Positions 5,059-28,699 of a stretch of 64,000 nt of DNA are shown here, in pieces (within the stretch, counting starts at the first letter, position 1; every line of letters starts with the position of its first letter). The notes under the pieces were generated by a model. It was not told the origin of the DNA, did not search any database, and was given only the letters and a program-made list of their open reading frames with translations. The stretch comes from Thermococcus sp. M39. GTDB taxonomy: Archaea > Methanobacteriota_B > Thermococci > Thermococcales > Thermococcaceae. The stretch covers positions 265,211 to 329,210 of the forward strand of contig NZ_SNUG01000002.1 in the NCBI RefSeq assembly GCF_012027325.1, written 5' to 3'. Position numbers and translations under genes: made by a program.

Positions 5059-6390
5059 TCACCCCCTCAACCAAGCCAAAATGTCAGATTTCTTCTTCGG
5101 GGGGATGCTTTTCACTTTTTTCTCGGTTTTTTGCACCTTTACCTCTCTTTCCACTTGTGGCTCTGTCTTTTGGAGCTTTTCTTCTGTCTTTTCCTTCTCA
5201 ACGACTTTCTCACCAGTACTAATAGACTCATCAATGCCTTCTAAAATTAGCCTTATTATTTCATCGAACTCCTCAAAGTCCTTCTCTCCAACTCTCTCAA
5301 TTACCTTAAGCTCTATAGGTGTAAAAAACTCGCTTGCAGTTGTCCCTTTTGCCTTCAAGAGAGAAACTTTACCGAACTTTGTCCTTATGTAAAGATATTT
5401 AACCTTGAAAACATCATGAAGGAAAGAAACGTCAAAAGGCTTTTCCCATTCAATATGAACTCTTAAGAATGCCTCACTCGGTATCTTTGCCACTAACCTT
5501 TTCAGCTCCCTTCTTGCAACACTCTCATTTGCCTTTATCCTAATATCATAGAAAGGTCTGACGTCTAATTTAATAAACTGAGGCTTAAAGTCTTCAACTA
5601 TCAAAAAGCCCTTGTCCTCTCCAGCTTGAGGTAAGAACTTATTTCCATCCCATCTATATCTTATCTCATAATCCCCAAAGTCCCACCTCTGCAATGAACC
5701 TGGGTAAGCTACGATGCCAAAACCTTTACTAGTCTGCCACCTCTTGTGTATATGACCCATTGCGTAATAGAGAAATCCATCTGGCAAGTCTTCAAGGCTT
5801 ATCTCAAAGTAATCTCTCTGGGTTTCAAGATAAAGCTTGTCCATCATCTCCCTTATTCCTTGATGGAGCATCAATATGGCATCTCCACTTGGTTTGAAAT
5901 AATCGCTGAGCTTATTTCTCTCAAACCATGCGGCACTCATGAACTTCATTCCGTAAATCTCAATGCTCTTATTCCCTTTCTCAAAAATTCCCTTGACAAT
6001 TAATTTTCCGTTGACTTTCTCCGTAGTTTGATATTTATTCTCCTTTTTTTCCTCGCTGAATCCAAGGAGATAAATCAACCCCAAAGACTCAAGAAGATGA
6101 TAGGCAGAGATTTTTTTCTGGGTTCTATCGTGATTTCCCTCAATGGCAAAAACTGGAATGTTGGCTTCTTTTGGAATTGACAAAATATCAATAGCATCTT
6201 TAATAGTCTGAGGGCTTGGATTACTCCTGTGGAATAAATCTCCAGCTATCAAGATAAAATCAACTTTCTCCTCAATTGCTTTTTTTATCGCCATTTCAAA
6301 GGCTTCTCTAAACTCTTCAGCTCTATAGGGCAAGCGGTACTGCTCAAATCCAAGATGGACGTCAGCAATGTGAGCAAATTTAAAGGTCAT
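5059..6390 (-). CDS. mre11: Mre11 DNA double-strand break repair nuclease
   Basis: Phosphoesterase-type nuclease with Mn-dependent 3'-5' exonuclease and endonuclease activity, partner of Rad50. The metallophosphatase motifs appear in order: HIADVHLG (7-14), AGDLFH (about 49-54), EGNHDRT (about 84-90), LHQG and GHIH. After the capping domain the last 75 residues form a charged Lys/Glu tail ending in a short basic and hydrophobic piece ([10 protein letters not shown]). Length 443 is close to the family norm. The ATG overlaps the 3' end of herA by 11 nt, showing translational coupling within the operon. Confidence 0.95.
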
Positions 6391-8113
6391 ACTCTATCCC
6401 CTCATCCTCATAAATTTGCTGAATTTCCCTCTCCTTTTCTTCTTCTTCAGCCCTCTTGAGCCATCTTGAGACAACTCCTATATCTTCACCACCGTAATCT
6501 CCGCCTTTAGATTTGAAGTTGTGTATTTTGACCAAAGCGGGCAGAGCAATTGCTTGACCAACTATTACAGCCTCACCTTTACCGAGAGAGGCAATATCTG
6601 AGAGCAAATCAGAGCTCAGTTGCTCACTCGCTTTGAGAACATAATCTTGGTCTTTTGGATTCACAATCCTTAAAATTATCTTCGTGTTTGTTTGACTCAA
6701 GACATCTTCATTGAGCTTATTTGGTCTTTGAGACACTATTCCCAAACCAACTCCAAATTTTCTACCTTCCCTTGCAATCCTGCTTAAAATTCTCACAGCG
6801 TCATTGTGCTCTCCTTGTGGAGCAAAGATGTGAGCCTCTTCCACAATCAGAAGGATTGGTTCAGCGAGAGCTTTGCTCTTAGCTTCAATATCCCTCATAG
6901 TTTTCTCAAGCTCTCTCATTTCTTCTTCTAGCTTTGAAGTTCTGGCAACTCTGCTTTCTCTCAGTTCTTCTTTTATACGTTCAAGCTTCTTCCTTGCTTT
7001 TTCATAATCCACTCTCGCCTCAAATATAGCATGCAGAAGCTTACCAACGACAACTTTCATCTGCCCCTCATCTAAAGGACCCAAATCGATGACATTAGCT
7101 TTACCCGGCTCAATCTGGGAAATTAAATCCTCACTCGTCAATAGTGCTCCATAGTTTCTTAAGAATCTTCTGATTCTCAGGACAACTCCTCTCAAAGTAT
7201 CAACTCTCTCTGACTTGAGTTCCTCAGTAAGATAACTCTGCTTTGCTCCATCCCAGTATCTTGCTTCCTTATGCCTTATCCAATCGCTTATTGTTTCCAT
7301 AAGCTTTTCGATAATCTCTCTGCCACCTAGGTTTGGATAGTCATGCTTAACGGTTTCCCAAGCTTTGGCCAAGAATTCTCTCTGAATTGTTGCATTCTTT
7401 GCAACCTCAATTAAATCAGCTAATTCCTCACTGTCCATCTCCTCTGGTCTTATTTTAGCTTCAATTATCTTGACATACTCTTTTCCAGTATTTGGAAGCT
7501 TTAGCTTAATGTAATCTCCATGAGGATCGAGAACAACAACTGTGCCTCTAAGCTTTTCAACAATCTGACTAATCATCACAGCCACAGTATTTGATTTGCC
7601 AGCACCTGTAACAGCTAAAACTGCAAAATGCCTTGAAACGAGTTCATCAGCATTTAGATAAATTGGAACACTTTCTCTCAAAAGAAGATTTCCAATCTCT
7701 ATGTATCCAACTCCGGGATTGTATATTGCCTTGAGAACTTCATCGCTTAGACGATACACCTTCCTACCATTGGGAATAGGAACTCTATTTGGCAAAACTT
7801 CAACTTTTTTCCCGTTAATTTTGATTTTACCAAGAATTCTTACAGTAGCTATAAGTTCTTCATTAGCTTCAATACTATCTCCATATTGTTCTAAATCCAG
7901 CTGAAGAGCATGATAGGTGCTTTTTCCTCCGCTGAGAAGCCAGTTTATATTTTCAAGCTTTCTAATATTGCCAATAACCCACTCACCCTCCCTATTTTGA
8001 GCAACAACAAATTCTCCAAATCGTAATTCAGCGTCTGGCTGAGCAGAGAATGTATAATTTGTGACAGTTGCCTCACCTCTGACTATACCAACGACCTCTT
8101 CTGTTATTTTCAT
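6380..8113 (-). CDS. herA: HerA bipolar DNA helicase/translocase
   Basis: Hexameric FtsK/HerA-superfamily ATPase that drives NurA in break resection. The protein is 577 residues long with the N-terminal HAS-barrel (1-100), Walker A TGAGKSN (169-175), an inserted helical region (about 200-400), Walker [10 protein letters not shown] (about 425), and a downstream [19 protein letters not shown] segment with the arginine-finger region. The ATG at 8113 is preceded by the minus-strand sequence GGTGGTAAC, a fair ribosome-binding site. It is the first gene of the operon; the next element upstream is an sRNA gene on the same strand. Confidence 0.95.
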
Positions 8114-8177: not shown

Positions 8178-8236
8178 AATCAGCCAGGAATCCGTTCATC
8201 ATCTTGTCATCAGAATCAAGGGCACTCATCACTGAG
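8178..8236 (-). ncRNA. C/D-box guide sRNA (2'-O-methylation), double guide
   Basis: On the minus strand the elements occur in canonical order: C box GTGATGA (8226-8232), a 12-nt guide, D' box CTGA (8210-8213), C' box ATGATGA (8196-8202), a 12-nt guide, D box CTGA (8180-8183). Size is about 55-60 nt, normal for archaeal C/D sRNAs. The guide before box D (ACGGATTCCTGG) pairs with 23S rRNA at 28050-28061 of this window: ten Watson-Crick pairs (CAGGAATCCG) plus a G-U. By the box D+5 rule the methylated base would be G at 28054. The guide before D' has an 8-nt match (CAAGGGCA) at 28071-28078, only about 10 nt further on, but with mismatches next to the box. Ends are estimates. Confidence 0.82.
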
Positions 8237-8249
8237 CATACTTCCCAGC

Positions 8250-8264
8250 TGGCTCTTTTAAATC
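8250..8264 (-). promoter_or_regulatory. TATA-type promoter of the C/D sRNA gene
   Basis: The minus strand reads AGATTTAAAAGAGCC here. The A/T core (about 8254-8262) lies roughly 23-26 nt upstream of the expected sRNA 5' end near 8235, the usual archaeal TATA-to-start distance. This suggests the sRNA is transcribed on its own rather than processed from an mRNA. Confidence 0.5.
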
Positions 8265-8307: not shown

Positions 8308-8817
8308 ATGAACGCCTCCTCAAGAGACCTGTCACAAATGAAAAGAATTCCTCTAAGTTTAGTTGCCATCAGGCCTGCAAAGCTTTTTGATTTACCAGAG
8401 ATAGTTAGGATAGAGCACCAATCATTCAGAGAACAGTATCCGAGAGGACTTTTCATGATCTTCTTAGAGAACAATCCGGACACTTTTTTAGTAGCCGAGT
8501 ACAATGGGAAAGTTGTGGGCTATGTTATGGCATATCTAAAGCCGGATTTAGAAGGGCACGTGATGAGCATAGCCGTTGATCCCATTTATAGGGGAAATGG
8601 CATAGGTAAAGCTTTGATGACTTCGGTAATTAATAAACTCATAGAAAAAGGAGCTAGATACATAGGATTGGAGGTTAGGGTTAGCAATGAAAGGGCGATA
8701 AAGCTTTATGAAACCCTTGGATTTAGAAAGGTAAAGAGGATCATCGGCTACTATTCAGATGGAGAAGATGCATATTACATGGTCTTACCAGTGAATGAAT
8801 GGAGGGGAGGGAATTGA
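8308..8817 (+). CDS. rimI: RimI/ArdI-type N-terminal protein acetyltransferase (GNAT)
   Basis: GNAT-fold enzyme transferring acetyl from acetyl-CoA to protein N-termini, in archaea of the RimI/Naa10-like type. Visible features: RPAKLFDLPEIVRIEHQSF at the N-terminus, the acetyl-CoA loop Q/RxxGxG/A seen as RGNGIGKALM, and the C-terminal LEVRVSNERAIKLYETLGF typical of RimI. The start is uncertain: ATG 8308 or ATG 8338 (MKRIPLSL), neither with a clear ribosome-binding site. The 3' end overlaps endA by 19 nt, so the two are cotranscribed. Confidence 0.87.
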   Translation: MNASSRDLSQMKRIPLSLVAIRPAKLFDLPEIVRIEHQSFREQYPRGLFMIFLENNPDTFLVAEYNGKVVGYVMAYLKPDLEGHVMSIAVDPIYRGNGIGKALMTSVINKLIEKGARYIGLEVRVSNERAIKLYETLGFRKVKRIIGYYSDGEDAYYMVLPVNEWRGGN

Positions 8818-9329
8818 AGGAACCAATTGCTTTTTATCTAAGCGGAGAAAGGGTTTTCAGTGAAAGAGAGAAGGCAATAAATCAGTTTTACAACAAGCGG
8901 TATTTTGGGGAGGTCATCAACGGAAAGCTTTTCTTATCCCTAATTGAGGCTGCGTATTTGGTGGATAAAGGGAAGATTAAAGTCTTTGATGGGGATAGGG
9001 AGCTGAGCTTGAGAGAGCTTTTTGATTTAGGAAAGAAGAAAGACGAGCAGTTTGATCTGAAGTTTTTAGTCTATAAAGACTTAAGAGATAGGGGATATGT
9101 TGTGAAAACTGCCCTCAAATATGGCTCTCACTTTAGAGTTTATCGCAAAGGGATGGAGGAACATTCAGATTGGCTCATTTGGGTTGTAAATGAGAGCCAA
9201 AAAATGTTTCCAAATGATTTAACGTCAAGGGTGAGAGTTGCACATGGAGTGAGGAAGAAAATGATCATGGCGGTTGTTGATGAAGACAACGACATTGTAT
9301 ATTACCAGATCGAGAGGGTGAAGTTTTAA
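8799..9329 (+). CDS. endA: tRNA-splicing endonuclease EndA
   Basis: Homodimer-type archaeal endonuclease that cuts the bulge-helix-bulge motif in pre-tRNAs and also in the processing stems of pre-rRNA, such as those in this window. The 176-residue length fits the alpha2 class. The C-terminal catalytic domain shows the Tyr in YGSHFRVY, the His in RVAHGVRKK and a following Lys. The start overlaps the acetyltransferase gene, and GGAGGG at 8801-8806 lies inside the overlap, so the ATG at 8799 could alternatively be replaced by a start just after it (for example TTG near 8814). No frame damage. Confidence 0.93.
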   Translation: MEGRELKEPIAFYLSGERVFSEREKAINQFYNKRYFGEVINGKLFLSLIEAAYLVDKGKIKVFDGDRELSLRELFDLGKKKDEQFDLKFLVYKDLRDRGYVVKTALKYGSHFRVYRKGMEEHSDWLIWVVNESQKMFPNDLTSRVRVAHGVRKKMIMAVVDEDNDIVYYQIERVKF

Positions 9330-23640: not shown

Positions 23641-23902
23641 TGGTGTTGCAAAGTATTGGGTGGAGCCCCCGAATAAGGGGGCGCAAGCCCAGGCACAAGA
23701 CGGCGGCGTCGGGGGGACTGGGTGCAAAGCACCCAACATGAACCCCGCCCTCCAGCCATGGGCACAACCAATGCACTCCCGAGGAAAACCCCGAAATGGG
23801 GGACCCCTCGGGGGTAAGGCAGGCCCAACACCCCGACCAAACCCCGGACGGGAATTGGTACTCCCCTTTGAGGGGAGTCCCACCGGCCGTACTCCCATTT
23901 CA
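23641..23902 (+). other. Pre-16S leader with processing stem arm
   Basis: This GC-rich, non-coding leader contains several small hairpins (for example CCCCC...GGGGG at 23671-23685 and GGGTGC...GCACCC at 23721-23733). The arm 23818-23850 pairs with 25411-25443 downstream of 16S: 17 perfect base pairs (GGCAGGCCCAACACCCC with its complement), an internal loop, then an inner helix. This is the bulge-helix-bulge-type substrate that EndA cuts to release 16S. Open frames here are composition artefacts. Confidence 0.8.

Positions 23903-25628: not shown

Positions 25629-28699
<3,071 letters not shown>

What the first reader, a model, noticed from the sequence alone, without database searches (positions are those of the whole stretch)
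8178..8236. C/D-box sRNA with a guide for the 23S rRNA encoded in the same window
Minus strand carries C, D', C' and D boxes in order with normal spacing and its own TATA box. The D guide makes ten Watson-Crick pairs plus a G-U with 23S at 28050-28061, predicting methylation of G28054. The D' guide has an 8-nt match at 28071-28078, 10 nt away. Two neighbouring sites served by one double-guide RNA is a known archaeal design. The locus is overlapped by a spurious 60-codon frame that would hide it.
Basis: partly seen in the sequence, partly recalled or inferred. Interest (0 to 1): 0.75.

Follow-up and report, generated by a model that had tools for sequence, protein, structure and literature searches.

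The report
Known sR5 methylation guide, second target corrected

Summary
Window 8180-8232 (minus strand) has C, D', C' and D boxes, two 12-nt guides and a TATA box; the box pattern occurs once in the window and never in 200 shuffled windows. The locus is not new: Rfam family RF01304 (sR5) matches it full length at 53.9 bits (cut-off 40), and about 60 Thermococcaceae genomes carry it. The D-guide claim holds: the core CGGAUUCCUG and its rRNA target 28051-28060 are nearly invariant and predict 2'-O-methylation of G28054 (E. coli position 2309). A better target is 28018-28028, the 3' strand of a variable 23S hairpin (E. coli 2273-2283), with 11 contiguous pairs; it is the best or tied-best rRNA site in 20 of 21 genomes tested. 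Guide and hairpin change together between genera, including at the N+5 pair (C-G, U.G, U-A). In this species that pair is a U.G wobble, so D' methylation may be weak or absent. Verdict: a new member of a known family, with a corrected D' target and a modest guide-target co-variation result. RNA and methylation were not tested.

The parts
8255..8262 (-). TATA-like element TTTAAAAG of the sRNA promoter
   Evidence: 30 nt upstream of box C; kept at -30/-31 in all own-genus genomes
8180..8232 (-). sR5 C/D-box sRNA, box C to box D (mature RNA probably ~58 nt, about 8178-8236)
   Evidence: Rfam RF01304, 53.9 bits, full length; boxes located
8226..8232 (-). box C GTGATGA
8214..8225 (-). D' guide GTGCCCTTGATT
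   Evidence: best rRNA target 28018-28028
8210..8213 (-). box D' CTGA
8196..8202 (-). box C' ATGATGA
8184..8195 (-). D guide ACGGATTCCTGG
   Evidence: 10 WC + 1 GU with 28050-28060; core nearly invariant in orthologues
8180..8183 (-). box D CTGA
28050..28060 (+). 23S target of the D guide; predicted 2'-O-methyl at G28054 (E. coli position 2309)
28018..28028 (+). 23S target of the D' guide (3' strand of a variable hairpin); N+5 nucleotide G28021 (E. coli 2276)

Best explanation
The locus encodes the Thermococcaceae C/D-box guide sRNA sR5. It is transcribed from its own TATA promoter between herA (minus strand) and a GNAT acetyltransferase gene (plus strand). The RNA folds into a C/D K-turn and a C'/D' K-loop and binds L7Ae, Nop5 and fibrillarin (inferred from the family; genes of all three protein families are present). 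The D guide pairs with 23S 28050-28060 and directs 2'-O-methylation of G28054. The D' guide pairs with 28018-28028, the 3' strand of the neighbouring variable hairpin, and aims at G28021. Guide and hairpin strand have changed together between genera. In this species the pair at the D' methylation position is U.G, so that methylation may be reduced. Shown here: anatomy, family membership, pairing, conservation, co-variation. Inferred: RNA production, RNP assembly, methylation.
For: Rfam RF01304 53.9 bits against gathering 40, full length. 76 of 94 family genomes match at E<=0.001, 60 over the cut-off, all 6 genera. Box pattern 1 hit against 0 in 200 shuffles. D-guide core identical in nearly all parsed orthologues with an invariant target. 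D' site 28018-28028 is the best or tied-best rRNA site in 20 of 21 genomes (in G004 and G030 an equal score lies beyond the 3' end of 23S, in G013 a tie lies inside 23S, G002 fails). Permuted guide/target haplotypes reach the observed pairing in 3 of 20,000. On 14 distinct guide/target combinations 92.9% of cells pair, against 42-51% when slid by 1-3 columns; three pairs change on both sides; covariation score 0.337 reached by 0 of 500 shuffles. Fibrillarin, Nop and L7Ae-family genes present.
Against: No RNA or methylation data for this organism. The D' N+5 pair is U.G here, while one survey states that the methylated nucleotide forms a Watson-Crick pair (PMC4644070). G002 keeps the D guide but its D' guide no longer pairs with the hairpin; in g3 the D' pairing needs a mismatch or an A bulge. 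No sR5 was found in a set of near-complete g4 and g5 genomes whose D target is intact. The permutation does not correct for phylogeny and the number of independent double changes is small. In this genome alone the D' match is weak (7% of random 10-mers do as well).
Confidence: 0.9

Rival explanations
1. One reading: sR5 with the D guide on G28054 and the D' guide on 28071-28078 (N+5 at A28072), 10 nt away.
For: Eight contiguous Watson-Crick pairs exist there in this genome; a neighbouring-site double guide is a known design (PMC4644070).
Against: The three guide positions next to D' make no Watson-Crick pair; the site ranks 6th to 8th in the own genus and 187th or worse in other genera, although the rRNA there is nearly invariant.
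Confidence: 0.07
2. The D guide methylates G28054, but the D' guide acts on the 28018-28028 hairpin strand mainly as a folding chaperone (it mimics the 5' strand of the hairpin), with little or no methylation at G28021 in this species.
For: U.G at the N+5 position here; the target strand is part of a stable local hairpin; a chaperone role for double guides has been proposed (PMC4644070).
Against: Most other genera keep a C-G pair at N+5, and three own-genus species have U-A there, which suggests methylation is selected.
Confidence: 0.3
3. A chance box arrangement or a decayed gene that makes no functional RNA.
For: No expression data for this organism; sR5 seems to have been lost in some relatives.
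Against: Boxes, D guide and promoter element are intact and conserved across the genus; no such pattern in 200 shuffles; Rfam match over threshold.
Confidence: 0.02

Closest known systems
Rfam RF01304, sR5 (C/D-box sRNA)
   Same: Full-length match over the curated threshold; same boxes and same D-guide region.
   Different: The D' guide (GTGCCCTTGATT) differs from the Rfam consensus and the D'-C' loop is 4 nt longer than the model: ordinary variation within the family.
Archaeal double-guide C/D-box sRNAs with two nearby rRNA targets (PMC4644070)
   Same: Two guides aimed at nearby 23S positions, 33 nt apart on the corrected reading.
   Different: That survey covers seven species, none from the Thermococcales (its Table 1); I found no paper in the held library that lists this target pair.
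RF00095 snoPyro_CD, RF01150 sR11, RF01141 sR18
   Same: Same box architecture.
   Different: 15-19 bits against gathering scores of 39-45; different guides.

Membership tests
Archaeal C/D-box sRNA | C/C' RUGAUGA and D/D' CUGA in the order C-D'-C'-D with ~12-nt guides | tested here: met
   All four boxes match the consensus; 12-nt guides; 7-nt loop
Archaeal C/D-box sRNA | Guide complementary to rRNA in the N+5 register | tested here: met
   D guide 10 WC + 1 GU, C-G at N+5. D' guide 9 WC + 2 GU, but U.G at N+5 in this species
Archaeal C/D-box sRNA | Core proteins L7Ae, Nop5 and fibrillarin encoded in the genome | tested here: met
   PF01269 341 bits, PF01798 253 bits, PF01248 113 bits; the first two adjacent on contig C4
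Archaeal C/D-box sRNA | Small stable RNA assembled with L7Ae, Nop5 and fibrillarin | not testable with these tools
   No expression or binding data for this organism
sR5 (RF01304) | Covariance-model score over the gathering threshold | tested here: met
   53.9 bits against 40, model positions 1-53 of 53
sR5 (RF01304) | Shared D guide and genomic position in relatives | tested here: met
   D-guide core shared in six genera; herA - sR5 - GNAT gene - endA order in the own genus and many g4 loci, mostly not in g3
sR5 (RF01304) | 2'-O-methylation of the predicted 23S nucleotides | not testable with these tools
   P. furiosus RiboMeth-seq data are deposited (PMC7758197) and modified nucleotides are modelled in a 2.1 A P. 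abyssi ribosome (PMC13324472), but neither table could be read here

The most novel reading that the evidence does not exclude
The D' guide of sR5 co-evolves with a fast-changing 23S hairpin strand (E. coli 2273-2283), and the N+5 pair itself has passed from C-G through U.G to U-A within one archaeal family, so that the same guide RNA would methylate G in some species, A in others, and perhaps nothing in the wobble state.
Probability: 0.7. Interest if true: 0.4.

Novelty: new member of a known kind. Interest (0 to 1): 0.27.

Why it matters
As a gene it is routine annotation: one more copy of a known rRNA methylation guide. The modest extra value is the corrected D' target. Because the guide and the hairpin it reads change together, and the pair at the methylated nucleotide differs between close species, the Thermococcaceae offer a natural series (C-G, U.G, U-A) for testing how strictly archaeal C/D RNPs need a Watson-Crick pair at the modified nucleotide. 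The apparent absence of the guide from some genomes that keep the same D target suggests that the methylation is dispensable.

Tried and rejected
Alternative D and D' targets in 16S were scanned; none is competitive. A coding reading of the 60-codon frame was rejected. Lower-scoring RF01304 matches elsewhere in g1 genomes and in this genome (L092-L097) carry unrelated guides and are other C/D sRNAs, not sR5 copies. The D-guide pattern in the named genome collection hit Thermococcaceae plus a few isolated bacterial or other records that I take to be chance and did not follow up. Literature searches for published sR5 targets and for 2'-O-methyl maps of Thermococcales 23S gave no readable site table. 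An E. coli record first taken for numbering (NZ_AP027888.1) was not E. coli-like 23S and was replaced by MG1655 rrlB.

Full report
What was checked. The finding places a C/D-box sRNA at 8178-8236 on the minus strand. Reading that strand and locating the boxes by script gives: TATA TTTAAAAG 8262-8255; C GTGATGA 8232-8226; D' guide GTGCCCTTGATT 8225-8214; D' CTGA 8213-8210; loop TGACAAG 8209-8203; C' ATGATGA 8202-8196; D guide ACGGATTCCTGG 8195-8184; D CTGA 8183-8180. The pattern RTGATGA-(9-14)-CTGA-(3-9)-RTGATGA-(9-14)-CTGA occurs once in the window and not once in 200 dinucleotide-preserving shuffles of it.

What it is. cmscan at Rfam's curated thresholds reports RF01304, sR5, at 8179-8235 minus, 53.9 bits against a gathering score of 40, model positions 1-53 of 53. 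Other C/D families score 15-19 bits there, far below their thresholds. The family rings in 76 of 94 genomes of the window's taxonomic family at E<=0.001 and passes its cut-off in 60, in all six genera. The D-guide-plus-boxes pattern is found in 58 of 115 genomes of the phylum sample, all in this one family. In the named collection the archaeal hits are nearly all labelled Thermococcus, Thermococcaceae or Thermococci; one genome of the window's own genus is labelled T. paralvinellae. The gene is therefore an orthologue of a catalogued sRNA.

Surroundings. It lies between herA (6380-8113, minus; HerA domains) and a GNAT acetyltransferase (8308-8817, plus), followed by the tRNA-splicing endonuclease gene (8799-9329). 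The same neighbours flank sR5 in the own-genus loci and in many g4 loci; most g3 loci lack them within the 1.5 kb examined. The TATA-like element sits 30-31 nt before box C in all own-genus genomes.

D guide. Guide positions -2 to -11 make ten Watson-Crick pairs with 28051-28060 and -1 makes a G-U with U28050; the N+5 nucleotide is G28054. By alignment to MG1655 rrlB this is E. coli position 2309. Only 0.4% of random 10-mers find a full 10-bp match anywhere in 16S+23S. The core CGGATTCCTG is kept in nearly every orthologue (exceptions G062 and G078, one change each), and the target is invariant in the genomes read.

D' guide. Scanning the guide against the whole rRNA shows a better site, 28018-28028: 11 contiguous pairs, 9 Watson-Crick and 2 G-U. 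Alone this would be weak (7% of random 10-mers do as well), so I compared relatives. The D' guide differs by genus: g1 GTGCCCTTGATY, g3 mostly GCGCCATCGATG or GCGCCATCCGATR, g4 mostly GCACTCTCGAAN, g5 GCGCTTCCGATC. The hairpin strand differs too: TATCGAGGGCGC or TATCAGGGGCGC in g1, TATCGGGGGCGC or TATCGGAGGCGC in g3, TATCGAGGGTGC in g4, TATCGGGGGCGC or TATCGGGGGTGC in the g5 genomes that have sR5. In 20 of 21 genomes with a full operon this site is the best or tied-best one within the rRNA; in G004 and G030 an equal score occurs beyond the 3' end of 23S, and in G013 a tie lies inside 23S. The exception is G002 (g2), whose D' guide pairs with neither site.

Co-variation. Shuffling target haplotypes among the 17 distinct combinations reaches the observed pairing in 3 of 20,000 trials. 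On the 14 distinct combinations with 12-nt guides, 92.9% of cells pair, against 42-51% when the partner is slid by one to three columns; three pairs change on both sides (guide positions -10, -6 and -5), and the covariation score of 0.337 was reached by none of 500 shuffles. The number of pairs with a double change is itself not above the shuffles (173 of 500). These controls do not fully correct for shared ancestry, and the number of independent events is small. The 13-nt guides of some g3 genomes pair completely if one A is bulged.

The N+5 pair. For D' the N+5 nucleotide is G28021 (E. coli 2276). The guide base is C in g3, g4 and g5 (C-G) and U in g1. The target is G in this species and in G088 (U.G), and A in G087, G089 and G092 (U-A). 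A survey of archaeal guides states that the methylated nucleotide forms a Watson-Crick pair (PMC4644070), so methylation at G28021 in this particular species is uncertain.

Mechanism. Genes of the fibrillarin, Nop and L7Ae families are present. From established knowledge of archaeal C/D RNPs, the RNA should form a K-turn and a K-loop, bind L7Ae, Nop5 and fibrillarin, and have the N+5 nucleotides methylated. RNA production, assembly and methylation are inferred, not shown. A chaperone role for the D' pairing is a live alternative, since its target is one strand of a stable local hairpin.

Dispensability. Several near-complete g4 and g5 genomes have no recognisable sR5 or D guide, while the D target is unchanged there. 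Loss thus appears tolerated, although a strongly diverged guide could have been missed.

Limits. No expression or modification data for this organism are available here. Supplementary tables that could settle both positions in Pyrococcus could not be opened. I found no paper in the held library that lists sR5's targets, so I cannot say whether the corrected D' target has already been published.

Noticed in passing
23665-23766 (+): H/ACA-type sRNA Pab19 (RF02794, 98.1 bits) directly upstream of the 16S gene; T. kodakarensis has an snoRNA called Tko-19 in the rRNA leader (PMC4247193).
   Followed up: no
G014, G015, G016, G023, G027, G034, G035, G040, G042, G045, G055, G060, G068 (g4); G076, G079, G080, G085 (g5): No sR5 or D-guide pattern found although the D target is intact; the g5 genomes without sR5 carry a different hairpin strand (TATCGAGGGTGC) from the g5 genomes with it.
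   Followed up: partly
L091 (G002, genus g2): sR5 with a conserved D guide but a D' guide (TGGCCACTATC) that no longer pairs with the hairpin: an orphan or retargeted guide.
   Followed up: partly
L092-L097: Second RF01304-like hits in g1 genomes (35-43 bits) with a different D guide (RTGGACGGYTGG): another C/D sRNA, conserved within the genus.
   Followed up: partly
L137 (NZ_AP027888.1): A 2,750-base circular 'E. coli plasmid' record that consists only of a 23S rRNA unlike E. coli 23S; looks like an assembly or contamination artefact.
   Followed up: no
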